61,433 nucleotides of DNA from a virus, in IMG/VR virus record IMGVR_UViG_3300035701_000031, positions 1 through 61,433 of that record; one strand, 5' to 3'. The notes beneath the pieces are model-generated. The model was not told where the DNA came from. It searched no databases and saw only the letters and a program-made list of their open reading frames with translations. A program made the translations under genes and the position numbers. Positions within the stretch are counted from its first letter, which is position 1; every line of letters begins with the position of its first letter. Positions 13,842 through 61,109 of the stretch are shown in pieces.

Positions 13842-13854
13842 TTTTTTCACCTTT

Positions 13855-14034: not shown

Positions 14035-14035
14035 T

Positions 14036-14620: not shown

Positions 14621-14625
14621 TTATA

Positions 14626-18893: not shown

Positions 18894-18897
18894 TTTT

Positions 18898-24167: not shown

Positions 24168-24598
24168 TTCACAAACCTCTCAACATTTTTTAAATATGGT
24201 TCTATTGCAGTGGCATCTGGAAGCCAATCTCCTGCGAATGATTGGTTATGCATTGCAACTGCTGATTGGAATACTTCATTATATTTTGGATTTTTTCTGA
24301 TAAATTCTTTTATTTGCCCTGCTTTAACTAATCTCCTCCCTGCAATCGAGGAAAGTTTTTGTTTGAACGCCAGCCAGCCCTTTTCATTTGCTTGGACAAA
24401 ACTTCTATAAGTGCCTGTTTTTTTGTATGAATTCAGTTGTCTTCTTGCCTCTTTGACTAATTCTTCTGCCCTTTCGTCTGAAAGTGCTGTGAACTCTTTT
24501 CTTCCGTCTTTTGCGGGAATTTTTATTTGCTTTGTTTCAATTCCTCTTCTTGCTAATGCGTGCCTTGCACTCTCATACCGCCAGCCCTTTTTTGTCAT
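24164..24598 (-). CDS. Tagged protein, 144 aa
   Basis: N-terminal tag KKGWRYESARHALARRGIET, followed by a helical and basic domain (DERAEELVKEARRQLNSYKK). No family recognised. It overlaps the ParB-like gene as ATGA. Confidence 0.8.
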   Translation of the reverse strand: MTKKGWRYESARHALARRGIETKQIKIPAKDGRKEFTALSDERAEELVKEARRQLNSYKKTGTYRSFVQANEKGWLAFKQKLSSIAGRRLVKAGQIKEFIRKNPKYNEVFQSAVAMHNQSFAGDWLPDATAIEPYLKNVERFVK

Positions 24599-24600
24599 TC

Positions 24601-24741
24601 TTATTCCTTCTTTTGTTTTTTAAACCATTGTATCTGCCCTTCTCTTCTCAATGCTTCTTTTTTTGTTTTGAATATTCCCAATCTTCTATGGGTCTTGCGA
24701 CTATACAAAACCCACTTTCCTTTTTCTTTTTTCAAGACCAT
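24601..24741 (-). CDS. 46-residue small viral-type domain protein
   Basis: The sequence KGKWVLYSRKTHRRLGIFKT then KKEALRREGQIQWFKK matches a small beta-helix domain often seen as a stand-alone phage protein (S-x-x-TG-x-x-LG-x-F-x-T-x-x-x-A-x-x-R-x-x-QI-x-x-FK). It starts next to the stop of 24744..25127. Function unknown in all contexts I know. Confidence 0.68.
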   Translation of the reverse strand: MVLKKEKGKWVLYSRKTHRRLGIFKTKKEALRREGQIQWFKKQKKE

Positions 24742-24743
24742 AA

Positions 24744-25127
24744 TTATCTTTTGGCTTTAGCTTTTAATTTTCTCGCTAATGACCAAGAAGGCATTGCTTT
24801 TTTTCTCGCTGTCTTTGACATACTTTTCCATTTTTTTCTTGCGGATACTGTCATTTTCTTTGCAATTGCTGGGGTCAATTTTATGTATCCTGTGCTTATT
24901 TCATATTTTCTAATTGCTTTTGGTGCTTTTGCTTTTCTCCAGCCGTATGGTGTCTTTTGAACATATTGCCAATGGGTGTATTTGCCTTTTTTTCCAACAT
25001 TCAATAGCATATATTGTCCGACAGGATATTTCTTAAATGCCCCTTTTCTTTTTGCTGGCATTGCTTTTTGCCTTGCTGTCATGGACATTCCCATCCACTT
25101 TTTCCTTGCTTTTTTGGTTTTTGCCAT
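24744..25127 (-). CDS. Highly basic protein with internal repeat, 127 aa
   Basis: ARKKWMGMSMTARQKAMP near the N-terminus is repeated as ARKKWKSMSKTARKKAMP near the C-terminus; the middle has PVGQYMLLNVGKKGKYTHW. The very high lysine/arginine content suggests DNA or RNA binding, as for a nucleoprotein of a particle. GAGGTGATTAAATATG gives the start. Confidence 0.8.
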   Translation of the reverse strand: MAKTKKARKKWMGMSMTARQKAMPAKRKGAFKKYPVGQYMLLNVGKKGKYTHWQYVQKTPYGWRKAKAPKAIRKYEISTGYIKLTPAIAKKMTVSARKKWKSMSKTARKKAMPSWSLARKLKAKAKR

Positions 25128-25133
25128 ATTTAA

Positions 25134-25529
25134 TCACCTCGGAATCCATTGAGCAGTTCTTATTAAAGTATTATAATCGAAATTATATTTATTGCAAAGA
25201 AATTTAATTCTTCTTTTATCGTCTACTATTCTTCCTTCCCAATCATTAATTTCTGATTTCAATTCTTTAATTTTGTTTGGTCTATTCAAAGTTCCTCTTT
25301 CCTGTTCAAGCAAAGATTTTTTATCCTTTAAAATACTTTGATGTGTTTGGAAATCTAATACAACTGCATGATGCACATCTTCTGGAGCAAAACCTTGAAA
25401 AATACCAAAAAAACCAGATTTTATTTTTCTACCAATTGGCACTTTTGTTCCACTCTTTCCAGCATTGAATACTTTGCCTTTTCTACTATGTCTCACATGT
25501 CTTATTTGATGTGAACCTTTTTTGCTCAT
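25134..25529 (-). CDS. Protein with SKKGSHQI N-terminal module and coiled coil, 131 aa
   Basis: The N-terminus MSKKGSHQIRHVRHSRKGK is shared with 26021..26314 and contains VRHSRKGK, possibly a variant of the tag. The C-terminus (RRIKFLCNKYNFDYNTLIR) matches that of 41783..42190. Thus three genes share pieces in different combinations. Probably structural. Confidence 0.76.
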   Translation of the reverse strand: MSKKGSHQIRHVRHSRKGKVFNAGKSGTKVPIGRKIKSGFFGIFQGFAPEDVHHAVVLDFQTHQSILKDKKSLLEQERGTLNRPNKIKELKSEINDWEGRIVDDKRRIKFLCNKYNFDYNTLIRTAQWIPR

Positions 25530-25553
25530 TCCCAATCCTTCTCCTTCTTTTTT

Positions 25554-25961
25554 TTAAAGTTTTGTTATCATCTCATCAACTTCTGCTTCATTCGGCTTTC
25601 GCCCAGTTCTACTCACAAAACCAGCCCTCATTGCATCAAGCCGCCTTAAATCCTGTTCCATTTTTTTAAATTCTTGCTCCCTTTGCCCACTTTCTCTCCA
25701 ACCAATCAAAAACTCTTTGGGGCTTCCTGCACTAATACCATACTTTTCTCCAATCCGAGCTGCCCTAAAATAATCATCAATTTCTTTATCTGTATAACCT
25801 AATTTATACAATTTTTCAATAAATTTTGTTAATTTTCCTATTGGCTCTTTTTCAAATTGTCTCTTTTCTTTGAATTTTGCCCATTTTGTTTTGATTTTTG
25901 TGCTTATACCTTTTCTTGCAAGAGAGTGTCTTGCTGATTCAAAAAACCACCCTTTTTTCAT
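25554..25961 (-). CDS. Tagged coiled-coil protein, 135 aa
   Basis: N-terminal tag MKKGWFFESARHSLARKGIS. The rest is very similar to 14626..15054 (KWAKFKEKRQFEKEPIGKLT, GWRESGQREQEFKKM). These paralogues lie in two different operons. GAGGTGAAACA precedes the ATG. Confidence 0.84.
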   Translation of the reverse strand: MKKGWFFESARHSLARKGISTKIKTKWAKFKEKRQFEKEPIGKLTKFIEKLYKLGYTDKEIDDYFRAARIGEKYGISAGSPKEFLIGWRESGQREQEFKKMEQDLRRLDAMRAGFVSRTGRKPNEAEVDEMITKL

Positions 25962-26020
25962 TGTTTCACCTCACAGCCAACCCGAACCAATCATTCCGCC
26001 TTTGGTCATAATCAATCACG

Positions 26021-26314
26021 TCAATATCTTTCTTTTTTTTGAACTCCTATTTTTATTTTTTTTTCAGCACCACATTTTGAACAAATTAATAAAATTTCTT
26101 TTGTTCCCATTTCGGCGGTATAATCTTCCCAATCACTAATTGAACCAGTTAAAATTGTGCTAATACCTTTTAAAAATCCCCCTCTTGGAATCTCACTTAC
26201 TTTTATAAAATTGTGTTTGCATTCCCCAGCTTTTGTTCCTTTTCCAGCACCATATATTTTTCCTTTCTTGCTATGTCTCACATGATGAATTTGATGCGAA
26301 CCTTTTTTACTCAT
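26021..26314 (-). CDS. Protein with SKKGSHQI module and zinc cluster, 97 aa
   Basis: The N-terminus MSKKGSHQIHHVRHSKKGK is nearly the same as in 25134..25529. Two cysteine sites (a lone ECKH and a later CSKCG) may bind zinc. Start at 26314 after AGGGGGAAAA. The 59 bases to the next gene hold no further gene. Function unknown. Confidence 0.74.
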   Translation of the reverse strand: MSKKGSHQIHHVRHSKKGKIYGAGKGTKAGECKHNFIKVSEIPRGGFLKGISTILTGSISDWEDYTAEMGTKEILLICSKCGAEKKIKIGVQKKERY

Positions 26315-26325
26315 TTTTTTTCCCC

Positions 26326-26850
26326 CTAATATTTCCAAAATCCTTTAATCGGGACTTTGTATTTTTGTTTCATCATCCTTTGATAATCTTGCTTTACTTT
26401 TTTGCTGAATGGTGTTTTTGTATATGCCCAAAATCCGCCAGCCACTCCGCCCATTACTCCAAATATAGGATTGGGTGCAAAAATAAGCCCTGTTGTTCCT
26501 GCGCCAGCAACCATTGCCCTTGCGAGTGCACTTTTTTTCCACAAATAATCAAATTGCCTTGGTCTTTCTTCCAATTTTTGTTGAAATTTCATTTTTTTAA
26601 CATCTTTTGGATGTAAATTTATTGATGGGGCATATTCTGCCTGTAAAACAAATGGTCTCATTGTTACTTCCATTGTTGTATCGGATATTTTATCCCAAAT
26701 TGTTTTTCCTCTTCCCTTCCAAGGATATGCCCTTTTCTTGCCGAATGGTCTTACTGAAAAAAAGGATTGTTTCATTGTAATTGTTCTTTTCTTTGGTCGC
26801 CCCTTCTTTTTTGCTCCAATGAAACCCGATGCGAATGGTAAGAATGGCAT
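26326..26850 (-). CDS. Membrane-associated basic protein, 174 aa
   Basis: The N-terminal half is basic (KKKGRPKKRTITMK) and the C-terminal half has a glycine-rich hydrophobic segment (ARAMVAGAGTTGLIFAPNP, FGVMGGVAGGFWAY). Gene order places it among other small particle-type proteins. No family recognised. Confidence 0.74.
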   Translation of the reverse strand: MPFLPFASGFIGAKKKGRPKKRTITMKQSFFSVRPFGKKRAYPWKGRGKTIWDKISDTTMEVTMRPFVLQAEYAPSINLHPKDVKKMKFQQKLEERPRQFDYLWKKSALARAMVAGAGTTGLIFAPNPIFGVMGGVAGGFWAYTKTPFSKKVKQDYQRMMKQKYKVPIKGFWKY

Positions 26851-26852
26851 TA

Positions 26853-27368
26853 TTATTCACTCATTTCTTTTTTAATTTCCGCAATTAATTTTTCTTTAAG
26901 TTGTTTAAAATTTGCCCCTTTTATCGGATAAAAGTGCACAATATCCCCTCGAACAACTTGGTCATAATATTCATCTAAATTTTCTCTCCATTTGTATTTA
27001 TCTTTTAAAATGCTCAATAATTCAAGGGGAGTGGCTTTTCTAATTCGTGTAAATTCTTCTTTTTGATTAAATTTCTTGTAAATTGGGCTACCCCATTTGG
27101 TCAATTCTCTTGCTGTTTTAATGCCTCTTGCAGCCAATGCGTGCCTTGCTGATTCATATTTCCATCCGACTGGTTTAATGTGTTTTTCTGGAATGTTTAT
27201 CATCATTCCAAGCCCAACTTGCGCTGCTTGTGTTTTTCCCTTTTTATCTGCAAAAATTTCATAATAAGTTTGTCCTTTTTCTTTTTCTGATTTATAAACT
27301 GTCCCCTGCCAGCCTCTAAATTTTCCAGCAACAATTTTCACTGGTTCATCTTTCTTGAATGTTGCCAT
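26853..27368 (-). CDS. KOW-like protein with internal tag, 171 aa
   Basis: The start at 27368 follows GGAAGTGA. The first 65 residues (FKKDEPVKIVAGKFRGWQGT then VYKSEKEKGQTYYEIFAD) look like a KOW/SH3-type barrel. The tag (GWKYESARHALAARGIKT) begins near residue 68, inside the chain. This is a second case in which the tag is not at the N-terminus. Confidence 0.78.
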   Translation of the reverse strand: MATFKKDEPVKIVAGKFRGWQGTVYKSEKEKGQTYYEIFADKKGKTQAAQVGLGMMINIPEKHIKPVGWKYESARHALAARGIKTARELTKWGSPIYKKFNQKEEFTRIRKATPLELLSILKDKYKWRENLDEYYDQVVRGDIVHFYPIKGANFKQLKEKLIAEIKKEMSE

Positions 27369-27376
27369 TTTTTCTT

Positions 27377-28423
27377 TCACTTCCTATTATTTCCATTTTC
27401 TCTCAATAATCTTTGCTGCTCTAATTCCTCGACAATTTGCTGTGCTTCTTCTTCTGAAATTTGCCTTTCTGGAATAGCTGGGGCAGGAATTGGTGCTGTT
27501 GGCTGTGGGGGGGTGGGGATTTGCTCTTCTGGAAATCCGTTTCCAACAGCCTGTTCGGCAATCTGGTCTGCCATCTGTGCCTCTTCATCAGGCGTAGGCT
27601 CTCTGCCTTGTTCCCTTCTAAACCGTTCTTTTGCCCATGAAAGTCCAGCTTTTATCTTTGCTCCCAAATAACCTGCTGCCTCGCCTGCTTTTTCTCCTAC
27701 AACTTCTCCTGCCCTTGAAATAGGTGCTAATCCAGCCGATTGCCTTTCTTCTTGTGCCAACATCTCTGCCTCATCTTCATCGTCAGGGGTTTCAAGATAA
27801 TTTATTTCGATACGAGTTTTTGCCATATCATCAAACTGTTTGTCCAGTGCATCTGCGCCAAATGCTTCTTCCGCAACGTTAAGTGCCTCGCTTTTCTTTC
27901 CGTCTGTTTCTAATGTTCCATCTATTGCTTTTTTTGCGGTTTCATCTGAAGGAAAAATTGTGCCTCCAAGTGTTTCTCCTTGTTTTTCGACTTTTCCCAA
28001 TACTTCTTCTCCAGCGATTTCCGCTTCTCCGCCTATGTTTAAAAGTCCTCCCCCGATTGCTTCCCCTTTTTGCTCAACTCCCCCTACAAAGGCTCCGCCC
28101 AATCCGCCAAAAAAATCAGTAAATGCGGTTTCTGGGCTTCCAATCGGCATTCCAAAAGTTGAGACCTGTTTTTTTTCTTCGGCTTCTGGTTTTTCAGTTT
28201 CAATTTCTGGTGTAACTTCAATTGCTTCTTCAATCGGCTTTTGCAAACTATCTTTTAAGGATGGGGTTTGCTGAACACTTTGTTTAATATTTATGTTTAT
28301 ATTGTCTTTTGGATTGCCTCTTGCCTTTACTTTTTTTCTTTTTGTTCTTCCAAGCGAAATGCCTTTGCCTGTTAAAGAATGTTCTGGATATTCCCTAAAC
28401 CAACCTTTTCCTTCGTTTGTCAT
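27377..28423 (-). CDS. Acidic low-complexity protein with degenerate tag, 348 aa
   Basis: The N-terminus KGWFREYPEHSLTGKGISLG is a degenerate tag. The rest is rich in glutamate, glycine and proline, with a glycine-rich middle (FFGGLGGAFVGGVEQKGEAI), ERFRREQGREPTPDEEAQM, and a PTPPQPTAPIPAPAIP segment near the end. It looks intrinsically disordered in large part. It could be a scaffold or linker protein; no family recognised. Confidence 0.78.
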   Translation of the reverse strand: MTNEGKGWFREYPEHSLTGKGISLGRTKRKKVKARGNPKDNININIKQSVQQTPSLKDSLQKPIEEAIEVTPEIETEKPEAEEKKQVSTFGMPIGSPETAFTDFFGGLGGAFVGGVEQKGEAIGGGLLNIGGEAEIAGEEVLGKVEKQGETLGGTIFPSDETAKKAIDGTLETDGKKSEALNVAEEAFGADALDKQFDDMAKTRIEINYLETPDDEDEAEMLAQEERQSAGLAPISRAGEVVGEKAGEAAGYLGAKIKAGLSWAKERFRREQGREPTPDEEAQMADQIAEQAVGNGFPEEQIPTPPQPTAPIPAPAIPERQISEEEAQQIVEELEQQRLLRENGNNRK

Positions 28424-28785
28424 TTTTCTAAAACCTCTCGTGGAATAATATGGATTCCTTTAAATTCAATGTCGATTTTTAATGCTTTTAAAGCATCTTT
28501 TTTTCTTGTGTAAAAGATGGGTGCATAACTTATATTTGAAATTAATTTGTTACCGCCTGTTAATATCCAACTATTGCCTAATTTAAAAATGGTTTTTTTT
28601 TCTTGGTCGCTTTCCCATTCAATAATATTTTTATCTTTTTTTGTTTGTCGCCAATTTGTATTGGTATATCTTAAATCACCAGAACTATTTTGATATTTTG
28701 CCGACATTACTTTTTGTTGTTTTGTCTTTATTCCTTTTCGGGCAAGTGAATGTCTCGCACTCTCCAGTCTCCAGCCTTTTGTCAT
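28420..28785 (-). CDS. Tagged protein, 121 aa
   Basis: N-terminal tag MTKGWRLESARHSLARKGIK, then a small beta-rich domain with IIEWESDQEKKTIFKLGNSW. The ATG follows GAGGAAGTGAAAAT. Overlaps the downstream gene as ATGA. No family recognised. Confidence 0.8.
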   Translation of the reverse strand: MTKGWRLESARHSLARKGIKTKQQKVMSAKYQNSSGDLRYTNTNWRQTKKDKNIIEWESDQEKKTIFKLGNSWILTGGNKLISNISYAPIFYTRKKDALKALKIDIEFKGIHIIPREVLEK

Positions 28786-28789
28786 ATTT

Positions 28790-29122
28790 TCACTTCCTCT
28801 GTTTTACAATTATTTTATTGCCTTTTAAATGAAAGGAAAGTTGGGGGTATTTTTTCCTTTTATAAAGAACTTCTGCTTCTCTAAATTCTTTTCCCCATTT
28901 TGATTTAAATATGAGATGGATTTCATTGCCTTTTTTCTCAATCTTTTGATATAATGATTTATTTATAGCCAATACATTTTTTTCGGTAGAATAATATTCT
29001 TGCAAATCAATATCGCTGTAAATCATCGGGTGTCTTTTTAATTGTTGTTTTGCCAATGCTGTCTCGATTCCCTTTCGGGCTAAACTATGTCTCGCACTTT
29101 CTGATTTCCAGCCTTTTGTCAT
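28790..29122 (-). CDS. Tagged protein, 110 aa
   Basis: N-terminal tag MTKGWKSESARHSLARKGIE, then a basic alpha/beta domain (EIHLIFKSKWGKEFREAEVL). It directly follows the 29124 gene. No family recognised. Confidence 0.8.
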   Translation of the reverse strand: MTKGWKSESARHSLARKGIETALAKQQLKRHPMIYSDIDLQEYYSTEKNVLAINKSLYQKIEKKGNEIHLIFKSKWGKEFREAEVLYKRKKYPQLSFHLKGNKIIVKQRK

Positions 29123-29123
29123 C

Positions 29124-29324
29124 TCACCACTTCCCTTTTTTTATTTTCATTGTTTTGATTTCTTTAGTGATGCTCTGCATTAAACCGAAGTTCGGTGCTG
29201 ACTTCCACGCTTCTTTCTGGTAATCCTTAACCAAAGTTTTTATTTTTGCGTTTGTGTGAATCTTGGGCTGCATTGCCTTTTTCAAAGAATCTTTAATAAT
29301 CGAATTTAAATTATTTTTTGTCAT
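29124..29324 (-). CDS. 66-residue basic protein without tag
   Basis: Lysine-rich helical protein starting MTKNNLNSIIKDSLKKAM and ending KKGKW. It abuts a tagged gene. It follows GGGGGAAGATT. Function unknown. Confidence 0.68.
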   Translation of the reverse strand: MTKNNLNSIIKDSLKKAMQPKIHTNAKIKTLVKDYQKEAWKSAPNFGLMQSITKEIKTMKIKKGKW

Positions 29325-29358
29325 AATCTTCCCCCTTCGCTTTCAATATAATCTTGCA

Positions 29359-30504
29359 TCACTTCAATTTTTTAAGTGCCTCCAACGCACTTGCCTTTGA
29401 GCCGTATTCTTGAAATTCCCCAACTGTGTCCACAGCACCTGTGCTTTTGTCAAATTTTCTGATGGAGTATTTTCTTTTTGCTTCTGGTGCTTGTTCGCTT
29501 GTGATAAAATATTTATCATTGTGAAGTTCGCTTTCAACCCTACTTTTGAAAAACCTCATTGTGTCTGGGTCAAAGTAATGCTGCCCTTTTTCTTTGTTTA
29601 TCTTCCTCATATCCGCTATTGTCATCTTAAATTCTTCCCTTTTTGTTTCATTAAGAATTACTTTCGCCACTTTTTCTGGTGCTTCTCCCGTTTCGTGTAT
29701 TCTTTTTACCGCTTTCACAAATTGTTTGTCTTGCGGTGTTTGTTCTTTTGGGTCTGCGCCAGTTAAAGCTGTGCTTGTAAATCTTTCTTCATCCCTATAT
29801 TTTTTCTTTAATTGTTCGGCAATTTTTTCAACTTCCGCTTTTTTTCCAGTTGGCACATAATAATCAACGCTTGAACTGAATAAATTGCTTGTTCGGGTTA
29901 TGACTGTCGCAAGCGGAATGCCAACTTCTGCAAGTCTTTTCTTTAGTTCATCATCAAATTTTTTAAGTTCTCGTTCATCTTCTGACATTGAAAGCGCAGT
30001 ATCTGAATGCAATTGTTCCCAACCTTTTGCTTCAACTTCGTAATATCCTCTCCAATCATCTGTTTTATGCCATTTTGAGGTAAAATCACTCCCATCTTCA
30101 ACTACATCGCCAGCAGTTAAATCAAGGTCTTGATATTCCCCTAATTGAATTTTTTGTTCTGTGCCGTCTGGATTTGAAATTATTACTGTGCCAATGGGGT
30201 CTTCTTCATCAAATTGAACCGAAAGATTTTCTGCTTTTGTTTTAATGTATTCATCAAGATTAGTAATGTTGCCTTTTTCTAAATCGTATTTTACTTCTTC
30301 TTCAACAAATTTTTCCCACTTATCTTGATTTTTGGTTGGATGGGCATAATATTCATCGCTTGTTACAATTGCCCTGATTATCTGTTCAAGGTCGGGAGTT
30401 CGTGAACCAAAAAGTGCACTCTTGGGTTTTGTTTTTCTCCCAGTCTCGATTCCCTTACGGGCAAGCGAATGTCTCGCACTTTCCAATCTCCAGCCTTTTG
30501 TCAT
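29359..30504 (-). CDS. Large tagged protein with phage-type C-terminal domain, 381 aa
   Basis: N-terminal tag MTKGWRLESARHSLARKGIE. Residues 120-260 form an alpha/beta region with VIISNPDGTEQKIQLGEYQD. The last 80 residues (MRKINKEKGQHYFDPDTMRF, YFITSEQ, YSIRKFDKSTG, TVGEFQEYGS) match a small domain that also occurs alone in phages (DUF7447 type). It is the second gene of the operon behind the repeated promoter block. A structural or co-injected protein is plausible. Confidence 0.82.
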   Translation of the reverse strand: MTKGWRLESARHSLARKGIETGRKTKPKSALFGSRTPDLEQIIRAIVTSDEYYAHPTKNQDKWEKFVEEEVKYDLEKGNITNLDEYIKTKAENLSVQFDEEDPIGTVIISNPDGTEQKIQLGEYQDLDLTAGDVVEDGSDFTSKWHKTDDWRGYYEVEAKGWEQLHSDTALSMSEDERELKKFDDELKKRLAEVGIPLATVITRTSNLFSSSVDYYVPTGKKAEVEKIAEQLKKKYRDEERFTSTALTGADPKEQTPQDKQFVKAVKRIHETGEAPEKVAKVILNETKREEFKMTIADMRKINKEKGQHYFDPDTMRFFKSRVESELHNDKYFITSEQAPEAKRKYSIRKFDKSTGAVDTVGEFQEYGSKASALEALKKLK

Positions 30505-30686: not shown

Positions 30687-31790
30687 AACTTTTCCTCCAA
30701 ATATTTTCCCGAATCCACCTACACCATTTTTCATAACAACAAACAATGCGCCAAAGGCAACCACTACTGCACTCAATAACAGTCCGATTCCGAAAAATTG
30801 CCCGATATTAGTCGATTGATGGGACACTCCCATTATAATGCCACTAAAAATGCTGAATAAGCCAGTGATTGATTGAAACAGGGGGTCTATATTTATTGTT
30901 GCTGGGCTTGGCTGGGCTGGCGGTTCAGGTTCTGGCGGTGCTTCTGTTTTATATGTGCCTAAAACACCATCAGACTGTCCTGTAAAAAGATTGCCGTCAT
31001 AAACTGCAAGAGAATTAATTGCTCCTCCAATATCACCTAAATTAGTCCAAATTTTACTTTCATTATTATATGTTCCAAAAACACCAACAGCATCTCCTGT
31101 GAAGAGATTTCCGTCATAAACTATTAATGCGGTAATATTGCTTGCACTAATATCAGCTAAATGAATAGGGTCGGCTATATCACCGTATGTCAAAAAACTG
31201 CCATCATAATCTCCAATAAAAAGGTTGCCATCAAAAACGGCAAGTGAATAACAATTAGTGCCAATACTTCCAACGCCATCAATATATTTTGCACACCCAT
31301 CATCTGGATGGTCAGCAAAAATATTGCCATTATAAATTGTAAAAAATCCTGAATAAGCGTATATGCCCAAATCTGTTGCAATCTTACTATCATTATTATA
31401 TGTTCCGACAAAATTCCCACTCACATAAAAAAGATTTCCGTCATAAAATTCAAAAGAAGTGATGCCCCCGCCAATATCGCCTAAAGAAGTAAAAATTTCA
31501 TTGTTATAAGTCCCTAAAATTCCATTGTCATATCCTGCAAAAAGATTGCCGTCATAGACTGCAAGTGCCCTCAATGAAGTGCCTTCTGCTATGCTTCCTT
31601 TCGAACTCCATACGCCGTTTTTATAAGTTCCTAAAATCCCAGCATCATCTCCAGTAAAAAGATTGCCGTCAAATACGGCAAGAGAAAAAAGCACATCTGC
31701 TTTTCTTCCTAACGAAGCCCATATTCCAGCATAACTGAATGAGAATAACAGCAGCAAGCAAAGCAAAATTAAGATAATTTTATTTTTCAT
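30684..31790 (-). CDS. Secreted seven-repeat beta-propeller with C-terminal membrane anchor, 368 aa
   Basis: A signal peptide (MKNKIILILLCLLLLFSFSYA) is followed by seven repeats built on [FY]DGNLFxG...GTYxN (about 40 residues each), which fits a seven-bladed propeller. After a PPEPEPPAQPSP linker comes a 70-residue anchor with two hydrophobic stretches (FQSITGLFSIFSGIIMGV, FGIGLLLSAVVVAFGALFVV). The anchor is the intronless counterpart of the split gene at 48518..48870. The ATG at 31790 lies about 30 bases after a TATA box without a ribosome binding site. Likely a surface-displayed binding protein. Confidence 0.85.
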   Translation of the reverse strand: MKNKIILILLCLLLLFSFSYAGIWASLGRKADVLFSLAVFDGNLFTGDDAGILGTYKNGVWSSKGSIAEGTSLRALAVYDGNLFAGYDNGILGTYNNEIFTSLGDIGGGITSFEFYDGNLFYVSGNFVGTYNNDSKIATDLGIYAYSGFFTIYNGNIFADHPDDGCAKYIDGVGSIGTNCYSLAVFDGNLFIGDYDGSFLTYGDIADPIHLADISASNITALIVYDGNLFTGDAVGVFGTYNNESKIWTNLGDIGGAINSLAVYDGNLFTGQSDGVLGTYKTEAPPEPEPPAQPSPATINIDPLFQSITGLFSIFSGIIMGVSHQSTNIGQFFGIGLLLSAVVVAFGALFVVMKNGVGGFGKIFGGKV

Positions 31791-32381: not shown

Positions 32382-32552
32382 TCAATACCTTCTTCTTCCT
32401 CTTTCTTTTGGAATTGCATCTTTGAAAACCCACGACCCCTGACGGAAGGTTTCAAACGCCAGACCTCCAAACCATTTTAATATTTTCCAAACAAATCCCA
32501 ACCATTCTTTCAGAAAATTTTCAATTTTTGTATTTGGGTCGTCATATGGCAT
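32382..32552 (-). CDS. 56-residue amphipathic protein
   Basis: The start at 32552 (MPYDDPNTKIENFLKEW) follows AGGTGAAGAAA and overlaps the ATPase stop region. A W/F-rich amphipathic helix (GFVWKILKWFGGLAFETF) and an arginine tail suggest membrane-surface binding. Confidence 0.65.
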   Translation of the reverse strand: MPYDDPNTKIENFLKEWLGFVWKILKWFGGLAFETFRQGSWVFKDAIPKERGRRRY

Positions 32553-34053
32553 TTTCTTCACCTGCTTTTTTATTTTCCTCTTTTTCAATGTCTTCATTTA
32601 GCCCTTCCGTAATGATATGTTCTCTGGCTTTTTCTGCAATCATTGTCAAAAGCAATTCTTCAGTTTGCAGTGGAAGGTAGTTCATGCCCTTTGCCGAATA
32701 AAATATCATTTTAATTACTTTTTGTGGCGCAATTATATATTTCCCGCTTTTTGTTTGCCGTAAAATTTCGTTTTGCCCCCTCTGCCAAATTTCTTCAGCT
32801 AATTTTTTCAAAAAGTCCCATCTCATGCTTTCTTTTGCCTTTAAACGCCTAATGTGTTCTTGTTTAATTAATTCATATTCCCTGACAATTTTTAATGGAG
32901 GCATTTTCGCCAAAACATATCCTCTTGGCACAAGCATTCCATCATTTGCTCGATGGGTTTTAAGCATTAAAACAAAATAAGCAGGATACCCGCTTCTTTT
33001 TTCTTCTGAAATTTCACAATTAAGGCAGTTTAGCTTTTTGCACACATTGCAAACTTTATTTTTAAATCTAACTGGCTTAAAACTTTCAAGGGTATAATAA
33101 TGCTGATGTTGATGCAAAGAAGGGGCAATGTAAAGCAAATTACACATGGAAAATCGAAGTTGCTCTTCAAAATCTACTAACCTATTTCTAATTGTGTTTG
33201 ACATTAACCCAACTGAAGTTATCTGTTGTTCATCGCACATCATTGTTTGCCTGTTTTGGCTATGTGAAATCAAATCTTCCATTTCTTCAGGATAAAATGC
33301 AATATCTTGTAAGGAAAAAGGTCTGTCAAAAATTTTGCCAAGTATGCGCCCAAACTCAATATTACTTAAACTTTTACCTGAACCCTGACTATTATGAGTT
33401 AAAACCCCATTACCCAAATAAAAATTATGATTATCTGGAACTTGCAAATCAATTGTTTCATCAAATCCAATCTTTTTAATTGATTTGATTTTCACTGAAT
33501 AATTTTGAATTGAATTTCTAAATAAATTACCCCCAATTTTTAATTCGGATAATTTTTTTTCTTTTTTATTTGATAAAAAAAAGGTGTGGTCTTTAGTTGC
33601 ATATATTTTTGTATTATCTTCAACTGTTATTTCATATAACTGTTTTCTTCCAGAATGTATTATTTTTGCTCGTTTATATTCATCTTTGCCTGTCTCAAAA
33701 TTATGCGTTTTAACAAAAACAAATTTTTTAAATTGATTTAATTTTCTTTTTCCATTTTTTGCCCATATCAGAGTATCAAATTTTAAGCAACCTTCGGTGC
33801 TCATCACAACATTACTTCTTGAATCAGCCCTCCATTTCCAACTTTCAATGAGAAGAGAAGTTAATTTTTTTGGATTCTGTTGTTGTGCTAATCTCCAGTA
33901 TTCATCATACGTTGAGCTCGTTTCTGCGAGTTGATAATCTTGGTCAAATGCCCAAGCCGAAAGGGGGTCATCTGAAAAAATATTGAAAGTTTTCCATTGC
34001 CGAGAAAGAGGTTCAATTTCTTGTTTTTTAATTGATTCGATTTCAACTCCCAT
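32542..34053 (-). CDS. P-loop ATPase split by a mini-intein, 503 aa precursor
   Basis: After removing the intein, the sequence reads VVMSTEG joined to SQGSGKSLSNIEFG, a perfect Walker A motif. TMMCDEQQ follows about 55 residues later as Walker B, then a cysteine pair cluster (CNVCKKLNCLNC). The mature protein is about 370 residues. It fits viral assembly, packaging or Zot-like ATPases, but the exact group is unclear. Its neighbours are small membrane proteins, which supports an assembly role. Confidence 0.85.
   Translation of the reverse strand: MGVEIESIKKQEIEPLSRQWKTFNIFSDDPLSAWAFDQDYQLAETSSTYDEYWRLAQQQNPKKLTSLLIESWKWRADSRSNVVMSTEGCLKFDTLIWAKNGKRKLNQFKKFVFVKTHNFETGKDEYKRAKIIHSGRKQLYEITVEDNTKIYATKDHTFFLSNKKEKKLSELKIGGNLFRNSIQNYSVKIKSIKKIGFDETIDLQVPDNHNFYLGNGVLTHNSQGSGKSLSNIEFGRILGKIFDRPFSLQDIAFYPEEMEDLISHSQNRQTMMCDEQQITSVGLMSNTIRNRLVDFEEQLRFSMCNLLYIAPSLHQHQHYYTLESFKPVRFKNKVCNVCKKLNCLNCEISEEKRSGYPAYFVLMLKTHRANDGMLVPRGYVLAKMPPLKIVREYELIKQEHIRRLKAKESMRWDFLKKLAEEIWQRGQNEILRQTKSGKYIIAPQKVIKMIFYSAKGMNYLPLQTEELLLTMIAEKAREHIITEGLNEDIEKEENKKAGEENAI
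33391..33789 (-). mobile_element. Mini-intein inside the Walker A motif of the ATPase, 133 aa
   Basis: The intein runs from C89 to N221. Block A is CLKFDTLIWAKNG, block B TKDHTFFL, block F DLQVPDNHNFYLGNG, and it ends VLTHN with Ser222 as the +1 residue. No LAGLIDADG or HNH motif is present, so it splices but cannot home by itself. It splits GxxGxGKS after its first glycine. Confidence 0.92.
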
Positions 34054-34056
34054 TTT

Positions 34057-34791
34057 TTACCCCTCATTAAAATTAATTATTTTATCTAAAAGATTATTTG
34101 GATTTTTTAATTCGTTTTCCCAAATTCTTAATACGGTATATCCTTTATTTTTTAAAAAACAAGTTTGTTTTTTATCTTTTTTTGTCCCGTAAGGATATTT
34201 ATGCCAGTAATTTCCATCAATAAAAATAGCGATGTTTGGTTTTATAAAAAAATCAATGAACCCCAAATCATATTCGTATTGTGAAATAAATTTTATATGA
34301 TTTTGTTTTAAAATTTTTTGAAATTGCAATTCTAAAGAAGAAATTCTGGGGCAACTTTTATGCCCATTTTTAGCTGCTTCAATTTTTTTATTTGGATTTT
34401 TTTGTGCCCATTTTTTATTAATTTTAGATAATTTCTTTTTTTGTTTTGTTCCTTTTGAGGAGTTCCAATATTTTAATATTGATTCCCTTTGTTTATTTTT
34501 TATATTATCTGAAATTGGTATGCCAATCCTGCTTTTATTAAGTGCTGTTAAATGTGGATGTTTAATCCCATAGGCTATACTTTTTTTGCCTTTTTTGCCC
34601 AATAATCTATAATGATTTACTTCTTTACATTTCTCACTTGCTTTTTTTCCATAATTTGGATTTGCTTTTCCTTTATAACTCCGTCTTAACCTCCAAGTAT
34701 GCCCATGTATATATTTGGGAAATCCAGCCCAGTTATAGTGTTTTTTGAAGGATATTTCTTTTCCGCATCCACAAGCACATATATGATTCAT
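34057..34791 (-). CDS. Vsr/EDxHD-type homing endonuclease with NUMOD3-like repeats, 244 aa
   Basis: The N-terminus has CACGCGKE and GHTWR, as in the other endonucleases here, then NUMOD3-like units. The C-terminal domain starts LELQFQKILKQN and contains FIDFFI, IFIDGNYWHKYP and LKNKGYTVLRIWENEL, the pattern of Vsr-like EDxHD nucleases. The ATG at 34791 follows GGAGATAGAA. It lies directly upstream of the intein-bearing ATPase gene, so it may home into that locus. Confidence 0.86.
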   Translation of the reverse strand: MNHICACGCGKEISFKKHYNWAGFPKYIHGHTWRLRRSYKGKANPNYGKKASEKCKEVNHYRLLGKKGKKSIAYGIKHPHLTALNKSRIGIPISDNIKNKQRESILKYWNSSKGTKQKKKLSKINKKWAQKNPNKKIEAAKNGHKSCPRISSLELQFQKILKQNHIKFISQYEYDLGFIDFFIKPNIAIFIDGNYWHKYPYGTKKDKKQTCFLKNKGYTVLRIWENELKNPNNLLDKIINFNEG

Positions 34792-34805
34792 TTCTATCTC
34801 CAAAA

Positions 34806-35814: not shown

Positions 35815-35990
35815 GTGAACCTCCCACGACTAAAGTCGTGGGCTTCTTGCTTCGGGGCGCATCCTTTCGTCATTTCACATCCCCTACGAGCAAACGGTGG
35901 TTCTCCACCGCAGGATACAAACAAACATCACCATCAATATTTTGATGATAAATGTTTATTGCTCCATTTACATCTCTGTCTTGCTTATAT
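35815..35990 (-). ncRNA. Candidate omega-RNA region at the tnpB 3' end
   Basis: In IS200/605 elements the guide RNA covers the 3' end of tnpB and the right end, and its guide lies just outside the element. Here a stable hairpin (35823..35842) sits right before the predicted border, and the guide would be the bases below 35815 on the minus strand. Placement is by family knowledge; the exact 5' end is not visible. Confidence 0.5.
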
Positions 35991-37063
35991 CCGCAATCAC
36001 ATTCATATTTCCTGTCTATTGGCTTATTGAAGTTGCCACAAGCTGGGCAGAGTTGCGAGGTGTATGGTTCTGGGACTTTTGCCAGTTCTATTCCTTTTTC
36101 TTCGCATTTGTTTTGCAATCGTTTATACAGCAAATCAAACGACCAAAGGTTGTGCGTCATCTGGTTTGCTTTTCTATTTTTTTGCGGTTTTGCAAGTATA
36201 TCTTTTACATCTCCGACAACTATTTTGTCTGGAGCTGCGTCTTTTATTGTCCAAGAAACAATATTTTTGAAATAATCATCAACCATCAAATGCCTTTTTT
36301 GATATAGTGCATTAATCTGTTTTGTTGAATAGCGATTGTTTCTTGTTTTTGCAATCTTTTGCAGGCGTTTTATTTTTTTGGTTAGTTGTTTCCATTTTTT
36401 GACTATTGGATTTGGATAGAGATATGCTTTCTCATTATCAAAGCCGACAATGCCTCTTTTGATGCCAATGTCTATTGCAAGTATGTTGTTTCCTTGTTTT
36501 TGCTCTGGGTCTTTGATTTCAACAGATTGATATAAATAAAACTTTTTCTTTATCTTATTGTAATGGATTTCTGCTTGCCTCTGTTTTCCTTCCCATCTTG
36601 GCATTCCATTGTATTCCAAAACTATGCCTTTTAGCTCTGTTTCTTTTCTCATTGCTCTTGATAATGGCAAGTGGACTTTATCATTTTTAAAATGATATTG
36701 CCCTGCATCTATCCGCAGCATACTTGGAATTGTTGTATTGGTTGCCCTATTTTTGTAATATTTTGGCAATCCGACTTTTTTTTGGGCTTTTGATTTGATG
36801 AGTTTGAAAAACGCATTAACCATAAACGAGTGTTTTTGCAGCATTGGGAGAGCATAGCTTCTTCCAAGTTTTTGATAGTCGTCTTTTGTTTGGATTGCTT
36901 GTTGCTGTTTGTAAAACGATTTTACTTTTTCTTTTTTGAATATAGCCTGCCTAAAGTTATAGTTAGCCATATTCCAGACGCAAGAGGATAGCGTCATTAA
37001 TTCCAGCAAGAGTTTCTTTTGCTGTTTGTTTACAGCCAGTTCTACAACGTTTGTTCTCTGCAT
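35870..37063 (-). CDS. tnpB: TnpB RNA-guided nuclease, 397 aa
   Basis: RuvC-I is NILAIDIGIKRG (D198) and RuvC-III is DRDVNGA (D364). The zinc site has CPACG and CDCG, and YTSQLCPACG is typical. In place of the usual ED of RuvC-II the sequence is IVVGDVKDIL (G284-D285). A glutamate pair on the next helix (E321, E322) could take over, as in TnpBs with a moved catalytic residue. TnpB cuts DNA guided by an RNA from the element end. Length is normal. Confidence 0.92.
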   Translation of the reverse strand: MQRTNVVELAVNKQQKKLLLELMTLSSCVWNMANYNFRQAIFKKEKVKSFYKQQQAIQTKDDYQKLGRSYALPMLQKHSFMVNAFFKLIKSKAQKKVGLPKYYKNRATNTTIPSMLRIDAGQYHFKNDKVHLPLSRAMRKETELKGIVLEYNGMPRWEGKQRQAEIHYNKIKKKFYLYQSVEIKDPEQKQGNNILAIDIGIKRGIVGFDNEKAYLYPNPIVKKWKQLTKKIKRLQKIAKTRNNRYSTKQINALYQKRHLMVDDYFKNIVSWTIKDAAPDKIVVGDVKDILAKPQKNRKANQMTHNLWSFDLLYKRLQNKCEEKGIELAKVPEPYTSQLCPACGNFNKPIDRKYECDCGYKQDRDVNGAINIYHQNIDGDVCLYPAVENHRLLVGDVK

Positions 37064-41782: not shown

Positions 41783-42190
41783 TTATCTTAAATCCTTTAC
41801 AGTATAACCATACTTTTTGGCTAAAAATTGTATGCGTTGTTCACTTTCATTTTTTCTTTTTTCTTCTTTTTTAAGTTCTTCTTGTAATTCAACAATTTTT
41901 TTAATATTCTTTTTGTGTTTTGCAAAATCAATGTTATCTTCAATCATACTTATTATTTTTTCACTTTCCTTATAATCACTAATTTGTTCTGATAATGCAG
42001 GTGGATAATGGTGCGTAGCCAATACAAATCCCATTTCTTTACCTATTTTAAATGGAACAGTAATTGGTGAAATAATAAATTTCCCTGCTCTACCCAATTT
42101 ACTAAAAAATTGTTTTGCCTTTTTCCCAGTCTTTATTTTCTTGGCAGCCAGTGAATGCCTCGCACTCTCCAATCTCCATCCTTTTGTCAT
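41783..42190 (-). CDS. Tagged protein with shared C-terminal domain, 135 aa
   Basis: N-terminal tag MTKGWRLESARHSLAAKKIK. The middle (IISPITVPFKIGKEMGFVLA) matches the end of 23154..23540. The end (RIQFLAKKYGYTVKDLR) matches the end of 25134..25529. It is therefore a mosaic of modules from the tagged operons, and it stands alone behind promoter block 4. Confidence 0.8.
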   Translation of the reverse strand: MTKGWRLESARHSLAAKKIKTGKKAKQFFSKLGRAGKFIISPITVPFKIGKEMGFVLATHHYPPALSEQISDYKESEKIISMIEDNIDFAKHKKNIKKIVELQEELKKEEKRKNESEQRIQFLAKKYGYTVKDLR

Positions 42191-42315: not shown

Positions 42316-42447
42316 TTACCTTGACAATGCCTTCCATAATACAATGAATCCAAGAATAAGAAAAACCCAAAATAAAATTTCGTATTGAAAATCTTGGCAA
42401 AATTTTGCACCTTGAACTATCACTTCGTGCTGGCAAACATAAGTCAT
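42316..42447 (-). CDS. 43-residue single-helix membrane protein
   Basis: A short N-terminus with two cysteines and one membrane helix (ILFWVFLILGFIVLWKAL). It overlaps the NUMOD3 fragment gene as ATGA. Function unknown. Confidence 0.58.
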   Translation of the reverse strand: MTYVCQHEVIVQGAKFCQDFQYEILFWVFLILGFIVLWKALSR

Positions 42448-42785
42448 TTTTTCCACCTTTTTTTATTTTTTTTGATAAAAGTTCTTTTAAGAGCCAAACT
42501 GATTTTTTTCTTTGTTTTTTCAGAAAGTTTTTTTCCTTTCATTCTTTTGCTGATTTCGGGTCTTTTTTTTCCAGCCCAATACCCGATTTTGCCCCACAGT
42601 GGGTGATTCTTACCTTGAAATTTTTTCTTAATTTCTGGTCGTTTCATTGGATTTTTATTTCCTATACATTTTCCTTTACGGCTTTTACTAATTTTTTGTT
42701 TTGTTTCTTTTGAATGATGTTTACCTAAATGAGAATTACTCATTTTTTTCTTTGTTTCTTTTGACAAAAACCAATATCTGCCCAT
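42444..42785 (-). CDS. NUMOD3-only protein, probable endonuclease remnant, 113 aa
   Basis: The whole protein consists of NUMOD3-type units (KKMSNSHLGKHHSKETKQKI, GKNHPLWGKIGYWAGKKRP) without a nuclease domain. Other copies in this window carry one. It is either a decayed endonuclease or a separate DNA-binding protein. It ends with a lysine-rich stretch. Confidence 0.78.
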   Translation of the reverse strand: MGRYWFLSKETKKKMSNSHLGKHHSKETKQKISKSRKGKCIGNKNPMKRPEIKKKFQGKNHPLWGKIGYWAGKKRPEISKRMKGKKLSEKTKKKISLALKRTFIKKNKKRWKK

Positions 42786-48524: not shown

Positions 48525-48870
48525 CTTCTACCGAAAAGGTTTCCGAAGCCCCCAACGCCGTTTCTCAAAACTGCGAAGAGTGCGCCAAAGACCAAGACTA
48601 CAGCACCAAGCATGAGTCCCGAGTATCAAATAAAAAATCTTAACGAGATTTCTTAATTTGATTATACCGAACATCTGCCCGATGTTAGCAGCCTGCATAT
48701 TTACTCCCTGAACAATGCCATTGAATATTAAGTTCCAATTGCTCAATTTCGTTTTTAAAAAACGAATAAAGGGCAATCGAGAGAACATACCGCTAATGGC
48801 GTTGAACAGAGGGTCTATATTTTAACCCAAATCGGAATTGTTTAGAACTCCAATTTGTTAGGTCAGCCAT
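48518..48870 (-). CDS. Small membrane protein encoded by four exons with three BHB introns, 73 aa
   Basis: Exons are 48859..48870, 48781..48821, 48663..48729 and 48518..48619, joined on the minus strand (222 nt including stop). The protein starts MADLNIDPLFNAISG and has hydrophobic stretches MFSIFNGIVQGV and FGIGLMLGAVVLVFGALFAV, ending GNLFGRRV. It matches the C-terminal 69 residues of the propeller protein at 30684..31790 without gaps. GGGAGG precedes the ATG, and the gene follows the LAGLIDADG gene by 8 bases. Likely a small, perhaps abundant, envelope protein. Unspliced, the frame stops after 25 codons. Confidence 0.9.
48620..48662 (-). other. BHB intron 3, 43 nt
   Basis: Cut between GGTATA and GGACTC. 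The central helix GGUA/UACU, the 3-base bulges UAA and CGG, and an inner stem UCAAAU/AUUUGA extending to a loop CGUUA can be drawn. The outer helix is imperfect. Removal restores FGIGLML, matching FGIGLLL of the intronless paralogue. Confidence 0.85.
48730..48780 (-). other. BHB intron 2, 51 nt
   Basis: The best of the three: outer helix GGUAU/AUAUU, central helix GUUC/GAAC, bulges UCU and UUA, inner helix CGAUUGC/GCAAUUG, and a further stem UUCGUUU/AAACGAA inside. Cutting after the second base of each bulge joins TTCTC to AATATTC, giving FSIFNG. Confidence 0.88.
48822..48858 (-). other. BHB intron 1, 37 nt
   Basis: Central helix GACC/GGUU, bulges UAA and AAA, inner helix CAAAUUGGA/UCCGAUUUG with a 12-base loop; outer helix weak. 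Removal joins GACCTA to AATATAGAC, giving MADLNIDP. With 37 nt it shifts the frame, so it must be removed for translation. Confidence 0.82.
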
Positions 48871-48878: not shown

Positions 48879-49961
48879 TCAACCTCCCGTTACGTTTACT
48901 TTTTTTTGTAAAGAGGTAACCATAATTTCATCAAATTTTTTCTTTTTTCTATTTAAATAAAGGGTGTTTGCTCCTTTGTAAAGCCAATTTGCAATTTTTA
49001 TAGTTTGGGGTATCCCCTCATAATTTAATTCCCAGCAATTTTTATTTTTTTGTTTTGTTAAACTTCCTTTTTTTACGCCTTTAATTTTTGATAATTTTTC
49101 TTGAACTTTTTTAAGTAATTTTTTTGAACCAGTAAGTTTGAATGTGGCTCTGTTTTTTCCATTTCTTTTTTTGAAATATATGCAACCATCGCCATCAAAT
49201 AAACCTCGAATAAAATGATTATCGGCTTCTTCTGAAATGTTTGGATAGGCTGAACGAATTGTTTTTTTGGTAATATCAAACGGGCATATCTTTTGCAAAT
49301 CAGAATACATTTGTTTACTGTTTATTGTGGTCGAATATTCTATATTGGCATCTGGGCGTTTATATTTTGTTATATAATGCGTTGAACCAAGGATATTTTT
49401 AATTTTTTCAATTGGTTCTAATTCATTTTGGTCAAAACGAACACGATAACATTTCTTAATTGCACATCCATCTGCCATCCAAAACCCAAGAACATAGGCA
49501 CTTTTTGATGTAATTTTTGAAAAGAATTTTTCATTCACTTTATGATATTTTTGATGCGCATATTTTACATTGATGTTTTTTTCTTTAAGCCAATTTAAGA
49601 TAGTCTGTGGATTTAAATTATATTTTTGCCCCAATTCGCAACTATTTGAGCCTTTTTTATATTCATTTACAATTTTATTTTTCAATTTTAACGGAATAAT
49701 TGAATGGGTTTTTAAAAATGCTGAAGGTTTTTTTGATGTTTTTTGCCTTTTTAAAATGTTTTGAATTAAACAATGCGAGGCATTATATTTTCTACCTAAT
49801 TCCCAAGTGCTCAAACCTTTTTTTAAATATTGGCTAACTATTTGTTTTTCTTTCGAATCAGTAAATCGTCTTTTTCCTTTATATGTTCGACCTATTTTTC
49901 TCCCACTGCGCATCCCTCTCGCACTTAAGCTATGCCTCGCTGGTTCATTCTGCCAACTCAT
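48879..49961 (-). CDS. Tagged LAGLIDADG homing endonuclease with HTH repeats, 360 aa
   Basis: The N-terminus is the tag in the form SWQNEPARHSLSARGMRSGR. Two HTH-like segments follow (STWELGRKYNASHCLIQNIL and SCELGQKYNLNPQTILNWL). Then come two LAGLIDADG motifs, YVLGFWMADGCAIKK and FIRGLFDGDGCIYFKK, with both catalytic aspartates. The ATG at 49961 follows GGGGATGATTTG; the upstream TTG was rejected. It is 8 bases upstream of the intron-split gene. LAGLIDADG enzymes are the usual partners of archaeal BHB introns. Confidence 0.92.
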   Translation of the reverse strand: MSWQNEPARHSLSARGMRSGRKIGRTYKGKRRFTDSKEKQIVSQYLKKGLSTWELGRKYNASHCLIQNILKRQKTSKKPSAFLKTHSIIPLKLKNKIVNEYKKGSNSCELGQKYNLNPQTILNWLKEKNINVKYAHQKYHKVNEKFFSKITSKSAYVLGFWMADGCAIKKCYRVRFDQNELEPIEKIKNILGSTHYITKYKRPDANIEYSTTINSKQMYSDLQKICPFDITKKTIRSAYPNISEEADNHFIRGLFDGDGCIYFKKRNGKNRATFKLTGSKKLLKKVQEKLSKIKGVKKGSLTKQKNKNCWELNYEGIPQTIKIANWLYKGANTLYLNRKKKKFDEIMVTSLQKKVNVTGG

Positions 49962-50022: not shown

Positions 50023-50220
50023 TCAAAATCGCCTTCCCCCTCTCCCGCTTGCTATATATTTCAACATAATAAAAATAACCACGACCATGAAAACAGCCGC
50101 CCCCAATAAGCCGAAAAACTGCCCGATTCCTGTGCTCTGGGGCAAGATTCCATTATTGACTAAATTTTGGAATCCGTCAATCAATTGCTGGAATCCTTGG
50201 AAAAATTCTTCGTAAGCCAT
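50023..50220 (-). CDS. Small membrane protein, 65 aa, distant relative of the split-gene product
   Basis: MAYEEFFQGFQQLIDGFQNL then IGQFFGLLGAAVFMVVVIFI and a basic GRGGRRF end. The GIGQFFGLLG stretch resembles NIGQFFGIGL of the propeller anchor. So three genes in the window share this anchor type. Uninterrupted by introns. Confidence 0.74.
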   Translation of the reverse strand: MAYEEFFQGFQQLIDGFQNLVNNGILPQSTGIGQFFGLLGAAVFMVVVIFIMLKYIASGRGGRRF

Positions 50221-60143: not shown

Positions 60144-61109
60144 ATGAAATTGGGCAGTTATCATTCTAAAGAAGCACGAATAAAAATGAGTTTGGCACAC
60201 ATAGGGATACAAGCAGGCAAAAATCACCCAATGTGGGGAACACACTTGTCTAAAAAAACAAGAAGAAAAATAAGCAAATCACTTAAAGGAAGACCTTTTT
60301 CTGAAGAACGTAAACAAAAAATAAGTAAAGCACATATTGGATTATTTGCAGGAAACAAACATCCATTATGGGGCAAACATCCATCAAAAGAAACAAGAAA
60401 AAAAATGAGCAAAAATAGTGCTAAAATTTGGTTAGGAAAACATTTACCCAAAGAAACAAAAGAAAAAATAAAAGAGGCAACATTAGGAATAAATAATCAC
60501 AATTATGGTAAACAATTTTCTAAAAAAATTAGAAAAAAGATGGGTTTGGCACGAAAAGGAAAAAATATGGGTAAAAATCATCCTTTATGGGGCAAAGAGA
60601 ATAAATGGGGGCATCATACCGAAGAAAATAAGAAAAAAATTGGAATGAACAGCAAAGGAAAACATCCATTGAAAAAAACAAGAAAAAAAATGAGTAAAAA
60701 TAATGCAAGATTTTGGTTAGGAAAACATCGTTCACAAAAAACAAAACAAAAAATAAGTAAAGCACAAACCCCAGAAATGAGAGAACAATCGAGACAACGT
60801 TGTATTAAAATGATTATGAAAGGATTTAAACCGAGCAAATTCGAAAAACGTATTATAAAACTGATTAAGCAAAATAATCTTCCTTGGAAATACATTGGCG
60901 ATGGCAGAGAAGGCAGCTTTTTCGGGAAACTCCCAGATTTTATAAATACAAACGGGCAGAAAGCGTTTGCAGAAGCCTATGACGATTATTGGCACGATGA
61001 AGATTATGTTCCAAAGCGAAGAAGGTTTTTTGCAAAATTTGGATTCAAAACAAGATTCATTCATTATGATGACAGCGATGAAAAAATTATTAGAATACTT
61101 GGGAAATGA
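60144..61109 (+). CDS. NUMOD3-repeat homing endonuclease, 321 aa
   Basis: Ten or so NUMOD3-type units (GKNHPMWGTHLSKKTRRKIS and so on), then the nuclease domain: FEKRIIKLIKQNNLPWKYIG, PDFINTNGQKAFAEAYDDYW, and FIHYDDSDEKIIRILGK. It is the complete version of the truncated copy at 1..710 and nearly the same as that copy over the overlapping 130 nt. It is one of only two intact plus-strand genes. Confidence 0.9.
   Translation: MKLGSYHSKEARIKMSLAHIGIQAGKNHPMWGTHLSKKTRRKISKSLKGRPFSEERKQKISKAHIGLFAGNKHPLWGKHPSKETRKKMSKNSAKIWLGKHLPKETKEKIKEATLGINNHNYGKQFSKKIRKKMGLARKGKNMGKNHPLWGKENKWGHHTEENKKKIGMNSKGKHPLKKTRKKMSKNNARFWLGKHRSQKTKQKISKAQTPEMREQSRQRCIKMIMKGFKPSKFEKRIIKLIKQNNLPWKYIGDGREGSFFGKLPDFINTNGQKAFAEAYDDYWHDEDYVPKRRRFFAKFGFKTRFIHYDDSDEKIIRILGK

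What the first reader, a model, noticed from the sequence alone, without database searches (positions are those of the whole stretch)
48879..49961. LAGLIDADG endonuclease with the particle tag, directly upstream of the intron-split gene
The endonuclease has two HTH segments, two intact LAGLIDADG motifs and at its N-terminus the tag that otherwise marks putative particle proteins. It ends 8 bases before the split gene. LAGLIDADG enzymes normally spread archaeal introns, so this one may target the intronless allele of its neighbour. The tag could place the enzyme in the particle, so that it cuts the DNA of a rival on entry.
Basis: inference. Interest (0 to 1): 0.82.

Follow-up and report, generated by a model that had tools for sequence, protein, structure and literature searches.

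The report
Tagged homing endonuclease beside three-intron gene
An uncultivated archaeal virus carries a DNA-cutting "homing" enzyme of a common phage family, to which it alone has added the short peptide tag found on a dozen of its other proteins, and the gene lies directly before a tiny gene broken by three archaeal introns, so the enzyme may help spread that intron-containing region between viruses.

Summary
At 49961..48879 (minus) lies an intact 360-aa protein: a 16-residue tag (31 bits against a tag profile; no other non-tag site in the window scores above -5.6), two HTH units and two LAGLIDADG motifs whose catalytic aspartates are invariant in 41 sequences. AlphaFold gives a canonical double-LAGLIDADG fold, best PDB match the archaeal intron-encoded I-Tsp061I. 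It ends exactly 8 bases before the split gene, whose three introns (37, 51, 43 nt) I verified: removing them restores a 71-aa protein 66% identical to an intronless paralogue.

The enzyme is PHROG 4645; relatives sit in phage recA introns. None of the 80 closest viral relatives has the tag, so the tag fusion is the novelty. The tag recurs on 71 other proteins of about five archaeal viral contig groups, but nothing shows that tagged proteins are particle proteins, and the enzyme's tag is the most diverged in its genome (8 of 16 residues off consensus).

Best reading: a free-standing homing endonuclease, spreading with its intron-bearing neighbourhood by trans-homing. An archaeal precedent exists (P. 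oguniense endonuclease cutting the intronless site of a neighbouring short intron). Cutting at an exon junction is plausible but unshown; particle delivery is speculative.

The parts
48879..49961 (-). Free-standing LAGLIDADG homing endonuclease, 360 aa (tag, two HTH units, double LAGLIDADG domain)
   Evidence: Pfam; PHROG 4645 1.5e-40; catalytic D164/D258; fold; GC3 0.22 against 0.26-0.38 for most neighbours, like the NUMOD3 genes
49878..49961 (-). N-terminal tag region MSWQNEPARHSLSARGMRSGRKIGRTYK (residues 1-28), predicted disordered
   Evidence: profile 31.2 bits; pLDDT 39-44; absent from 80 closest viral relatives
48528..48870 (-). Split gene for a 71-aa membrane-type protein, four exons: 48870-48859, 48821-48781, 48729-48663, 48619-48528
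   Evidence: a profile of three rows finds the two larger exon groups at 4.6e-14 and 2.0e-10
48822..48858 (-). Intron 1, 37 nt, relaxed BHB: central helix GACC/GGUU, bulges UAA and AAA, 12-bp intron stem, no adjacent exon helix
   Evidence: rank 2 of 1133 mechanical BHB sites
48730..48780 (-). Intron 2, 51 nt, canonical hBHBh': GUUC/GAAC, bulges UCU and UUA, exon helix of 5 bp
   Evidence: rank 3 of 1133
48620..48662 (-). Intron 3, 43 nt, weaker BHB: GGUA/UACU, bulges UAA and CGG
   Evidence: rank 50 of 1133
30687..30896 (-). Intronless paralogue of the split gene: C-terminal domain of ORF 31826-30684; carries the junction-1 sequence with 19/22 nt identity
   Evidence: 66% protein identity; 5.5e-38; DNA comparison
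50023..50220 (-). Second, more distant intronless paralogue (65 aa), immediately upstream of the endonuclease gene

Best explanation
The gene is a free-standing mobile homing endonuclease gene lodged between two paralogous small membrane-protein genes of an archaeal virus. The enzyme is a monomer: two LAGLIDADG halves cut one DNA site, and the HTH units add DNA contacts. In a mixed infection it would cut a related virus that lacks the gene, near the neighbouring small-protein gene, most plausibly where the short introns sit; repair from the donor would copy the endonuclease gene and the introns together (trans or collaborative homing), while the introns destroy the site in the donor and protect it. 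The virus, or a relative from which the gene came, fused its common peptide tag to the enzyme; the tag probably addresses the enzyme to wherever the other tagged proteins go. Shown by sequence: intact catalytic domain, added tag, adjacency, three BHB-type introns, free-standing position. Inferred: DNA cleavage, target site, mobility, splicing and the role of the tag.
For: PHROG 4645 at 1.5e-40, with relatives inside the split recA gene of Staphylococcus phages and next to dnaE genes on Bacillota plasmids; both catalytic aspartates invariant; fold closest to an archaeal intron-encoded endonuclease, I-Tsp061I, 6.4e-9; no intron of its own: BHB candidates spanning the gene are no better than controls, no group I intron; AT-rich like the window's NUMOD3 endonuclease genes; three introns verified against an intronless paralogue. 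Precedents: PMC4496867, PMC2988022.
Against: No target site is known and no homologue of the split gene was found outside the window to show linked presence or absence of introns and enzyme. Junction 1 is almost intact in an intronless paralogue of the same genome, which such an enzyme should also threaten. One enzyme would normally account for one site, not three introns; archaeal cbf5 introns persist without any linked endonuclease (PMC2738675).
Confidence: 0.5

Rival explanations
1. Ordinary free-standing homing endonuclease whose target is elsewhere; its position before the split gene is coincidence and the introns have another origin.
For: Free-standing phage endonucleases often cut hundreds to thousands of bases from their own gene (PMC2988022); the window holds five NUMOD3-repeat genes and two inteins, so mobile endonucleases are common here; protein-gene introns exist in archaea without endonucleases (PMC2738675).
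Against: A viral gene with three BHB-type introns is very unusual, and the enzyme abuts it with 8 bases between them; the closest fold is that of an archaeal intron endonuclease.
Confidence: 0.32
2. The tag packs the enzyme into the particle, so that it enters the cell with the DNA and cuts a competitor at once.
For: The tag is portable (N-terminal, internal and C-terminal copies) and nearly uniform within each virus, as expected for recognition by one viral partner; single tagged proteins match ParB-like and nucleotidyltransferase families, and ParB-like domains are known from injected polyvalent proteins (PMC5512222); a phage homing endonuclease can suppress a co-infecting phage (PMC11620839).
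Against: No tagged protein matches a capsid, portal or tail family; the enzyme's tag is 8 of 16 residues off the virus's consensus; homing works without virion delivery.
Confidence: 0.12
3. A domesticated LAGLIDADG-HTH protein that binds DNA as a regulator (WhiA-like) and no longer cuts.
For: WhiA is among the fold matches; the protein has two HTH units.
Against: Both catalytic aspartates and surrounding motifs are intact and the closest sequences are phage endonucleases.
Confidence: 0.05

Closest known systems
PHROG 4645 endonucleases (e.g. in the recA intron of Staphylococcus phages Romulus and phiSA_BS1)
   Same: HTH plus double LAGLIDADG domain over residues 25-348; same motif spacing
   Different: those lie inside intron-split genes of bacterial phages and lack the tag; this one is free-standing in an archaeal virus
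Archaeal BHB-intron endonucleases (I-Tsp061I, I-DmoI, Pog.S1213)
   Same: double LAGLIDADG fold; association with short archaeal introns; Pog.S1213 acts at the intronless site of a neighbouring short hairpin intron (PMC4496867)
   Different: those are encoded inside rRNA introns; here the gene lies outside the introns, beside a protein gene, and has HTH units and a tag
T4-type free-standing homing endonucleases (MobE, SegF, SegG)
   Same: intergenic viral gene next to its putative target; MobE mobilises a neighbouring defective intron in trans (PMC2988022)
   Different: HNH or GIY-YIG enzymes with group I introns in bacteria; target not known here

Membership tests
LAGLIDADG homing endonuclease (PHROG 4645 / LAGLIDADG_3) | two LAGLIDADG helices, each with a catalytic acidic residue | tested here: met
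   D164 and D258 invariant in 41 sequences; Pfam 1.1e-12
LAGLIDADG homing endonuclease (PHROG 4645 / LAGLIDADG_3) | saddle-like alpha-beta-beta repeat fold | tested here: met
   mean pLDDT 86.7; Foldseek best 2dch 6.4e-9, many LAGLIDADG enzymes follow
LAGLIDADG homing endonuclease (PHROG 4645 / LAGLIDADG_3) | site-specific double-strand cleavage and gene mobility | not testable with these tools
   needs protein and crosses; no empty-site homologue found
Intron-encoded archaeal homing endonuclease | reading frame lies inside the intron | tested here: not met
   introns are 37, 51 and 43 nt and lie downstream of the gene; no BHB structure spans the endonuclease beyond control
Free-standing / trans-acting viral homing endonuclease | intergenic gene between other genes, not in intron or intein | tested here: met
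   lies between 50023 and 48870, flanked by two paralogous genes
Free-standing / trans-acting viral homing endonuclease | cleaves the intronless or gene-less allele nearby | not testable with these tools
   no intronless allele of the gene in another virus
Archaeal BHB introns in a protein gene | two 3-nt bulges around a 4-bp helix at the splice sites and in-frame joining | tested here: met
   all three geometries and the restored frame; introns 1 and 3 are relaxed forms
Archaeal BHB introns in a protein gene | splicing of the mRNA | not testable with these tools
   needs RNA
Virion-packaged (tag-directed) proteins | present in particles | not testable with these tools
   no proteomics; tagged proteins match no virion family

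The most novel reading that the evidence does not exclude
A homing endonuclease given a virus's own addressing tag, so that it travels with the other tagged proteins into the next cell and cuts intronless rivals on entry, while three short introns in the neighbouring gene immunise the carrier: a weapon-and-immunity arrangement built from an endonuclease and archaeal introns.
Probability: 0.08. Interest if true: 0.92.

Novelty: new variant of a known kind. Interest (0 to 1): 0.6.

Why it matters
How very short archaeal introns in protein genes spread is an open question, because they are too small to encode an endonuclease (stated for cbf5 in PMC2738675). A gene with three such introns, an intronless paralogue in the same genome and an intact endonuclease 8 bases away makes trans-homing directly testable with synthetic DNA. 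The peptide tag, shared by many unrelated proteins of several archaeal viruses and here fused to an enzyme with known chemistry, offers a handle on an unstudied addressing signal.

Tried and rejected
Direct searches with the endonuclease alone, the packaging-type ATPase, the 1737-aa protein and the split-gene pair found no relatives of this virus in IMG/VR. The alignment-based search found at least 549 endonuclease relatives. The short tag found nothing in the phage collection, and a proline-variant tag pattern nothing in IMG/VR. A broad tag pattern over bacteria and archaea gave mostly chance hits; only contigs with several tags, and one single convincing copy, were kept. Two phylum-wide tag scans gave only the known contigs and that one single hit. 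No paper in the open library prints six common spellings of the tag motif. I considered that the endonuclease itself lies in a long BHB or group I intron and rejected it. I considered chance for the tag and rejected it. My first placement of intron 1, with bulges before the central helix, failed; the tRNA-like order (helix, then bulge) fits and agrees with the paralogue.

Full report
What is there. The window is a complete IMG/VR record of 61,433 bases, linear, perhaps a fragment, from an apparently archaeal virus without close relatives in the collections searched. On the minus strand, 49961 to 48879, lies an uninterrupted 360-codon frame.

The enzyme. Pfam gives LAGLIDADG_3 at 1.1e-12 and PHROGs gives family 4645, 'endonuclease', at 1.5e-40 over residues 55-348. 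Phage relatives align from residue 25 on, at 25-30% identity, and several lie inside a recA gene split by an intron; plasmid relatives lie beside dnaE. A profile search of viral contigs found at least 549 relatives. In 41 aligned sequences the catalytic aspartates of both motifs are invariant. The AlphaFold model (mean pLDDT 86.7) shows two helical HTH units and two LAGLIDADG halves; the first 28 residues are disordered. The best solved structure is I-Tsp061I, an archaeal intron-encoded endonuclease, followed by other LAGLIDADG enzymes; WhiA, a LAGLIDADG regulator, also matches. The gene is AT-rich (GC 0.295, third positions 0.22), like the window's NUMOD3 endonuclease genes and unlike most neighbours. 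All this describes an intact homing endonuclease that arrived as a mobile gene.

The tag. A profile built from 51 distinct tags, this one left out, scores the enzyme's tag at 31.2 bits. The other twelve tags of the window score 51.6 to 61.4, a degenerate copy in ORF 28423-27377 scores 8.6, and every other reading of the window below -5. None of the 80 closest viral relatives carries it, so it was added in this lineage or in a near donor. The tag occurs on 72 proteins in all: in this virus, a 74-kb IMG/VR virus, contigs binned with a euryarchaeote, a Woesearchaeon and a WOR-3 genome, and once on a further contig. It is mostly N-terminal but C-terminal in two proteins and internal in one. Within each virus the tags are nearly uniform, and they differ between viruses, as if each set is read by its own partner. 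The enzyme's tag breaks this rule: 8 of 16 residues off its own virus's consensus, nearest to the tags on the euryarchaeote-binned contigs (5 differences). It may have come from another tagged virus or be decaying. The tagged proteins match few families: the LAGLIDADG enzyme, a nucleotidyltransferase domain, a ParB-like protein, DUF5661, DUF7447 and unknown families. No capsid, portal or tail family appears, so 'particle tag' is unproven.

The split gene. Using the archaeal tRNA-type geometry (helix, three-base bulge, cut after the second bulge base; from established knowledge), I find introns at 48858-48822, 48780-48730 and 48662-48620. Joining the exons gives MADLNIDPLFNAISGMFSIFNGIVQGVNMQAANIGQMFGIGLMLGAVVLVFGALFAVLRNGVGGFGNLFGR and a stop codon. 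This is 66% identical, without a gap inside the shared region, to the intronless C-terminal domain of ORF 31826-30684. A mechanical scan of the whole minus strand ranks introns 1 and 2 second and third of 1133 candidate sites, intron 3 fiftieth. Intron 2 is canonical; introns 1 and 3 are relaxed forms. A second paralogue lies directly upstream of the endonuclease gene (50220-50023), so the enzyme sits between two paralogues. Splicing is not shown.

How it may work. The gene is not inside an intron: no BHB structure spanning it exceeds controls and no group I intron is found. It is thus free-standing. Phage T4 has twelve such enzymes; they convert gene-less relatives during mixed infection, and MobE mobilises a neighbouring defective intron in trans (PMC2988022). 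In Pyrobaculum oguniense the endonuclease of one rRNA intron cuts the intronless site of a neighbouring short hairpin intron eight nucleotides away, so that both are inherited together (PMC4496867). The arrangement here fits that scheme: short introns that encode nothing, an apparently intact enzyme beside them. I put homing by DNA cleavage as very likely, action in this neighbourhood as somewhat more likely than not, and an exon junction as target as possible. A caution: the 22 bases around junction 1 match the intronless paralogue in the same genome at 19 positions, the best window of the gene pair, whose average is 14. An enzyme aimed there would have to discriminate the two, or it would cut its own carrier; junctions 2 and 3 are less alike.

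Delivery in the particle. A phage homing endonuclease can harm a co-infecting phage (PMC11620839), and injected multidomain proteins with ParB-like domains are known from phages (PMC5512222). Nothing here tests it, and the divergence of this tag copy weakens it.

Known and new. The enzyme is a member of a known family. Introns in archaeal protein genes are known for cbf5, and putative 12-base introns were reported in an archaeal virus (PMC2738675). New, as far as the sources reach, are a multi-protein viral tag fused to a homing endonuclease, and a free-standing LAGLIDADG gene abutting a viral gene with three BHB-type introns.

Noticed in passing
48528-48870, minus: A 71-codon viral gene with three BHB-type introns (37, 51, 43 nt), confirmed by an intronless paralogue; as interesting as the endonuclease itself.
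   Followed up: yes
11443-15054, 23550-30504, 41783-42190, minus; L001-L006, L010, L015, L128-L130: A peptide tag W..E.ARHSLARKGIKT on 72 mostly unrelated proteins of about five archaeal viral contig groups, nearly uniform within each virus and different between viruses; mostly N-terminal, also C-terminal (12731-13135) and internal (26853-27380). No name or paper found.
   Followed up: partly
25134-25535 and 26021-26338, minus: A second shared N-terminus, MSKKGSHQIxHVRHSxKGKxxxAGK, on two neighbouring proteins.
   Followed up: no
32542-34053 and 20056-22644, minus: Two inteins: one splits the Walker A motif (STEG/SQGSGKS) of a putative packaging-type ATPase, one (seen by eye only) a helicase.
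   Followed up: no
3203-3964, 10413-11372, 34057-34803, 42444-42785 (minus), 60144-61109 (plus): Five NUMOD3-type (putative endonuclease) genes, all AT-rich, plus a TnpB gene at 35870-37063; only 42444-42785 was checked with Pfam.
   Followed up: partly
16647-19593, minus: A run of sugar-metabolism-like genes (aldolase-type, methyltransferase, HpcH/HpaI aldolase-like, SIS-domain isomerase) in a virus, read by eye.
   Followed up: no
L016 / L130 (7056-5857, minus): A tagged 400-aa protein of a Woesearchaeota-binned contig has a HELGHH zincin-like motif near its end, as in injected polyvalent phage proteins.
   Followed up: no
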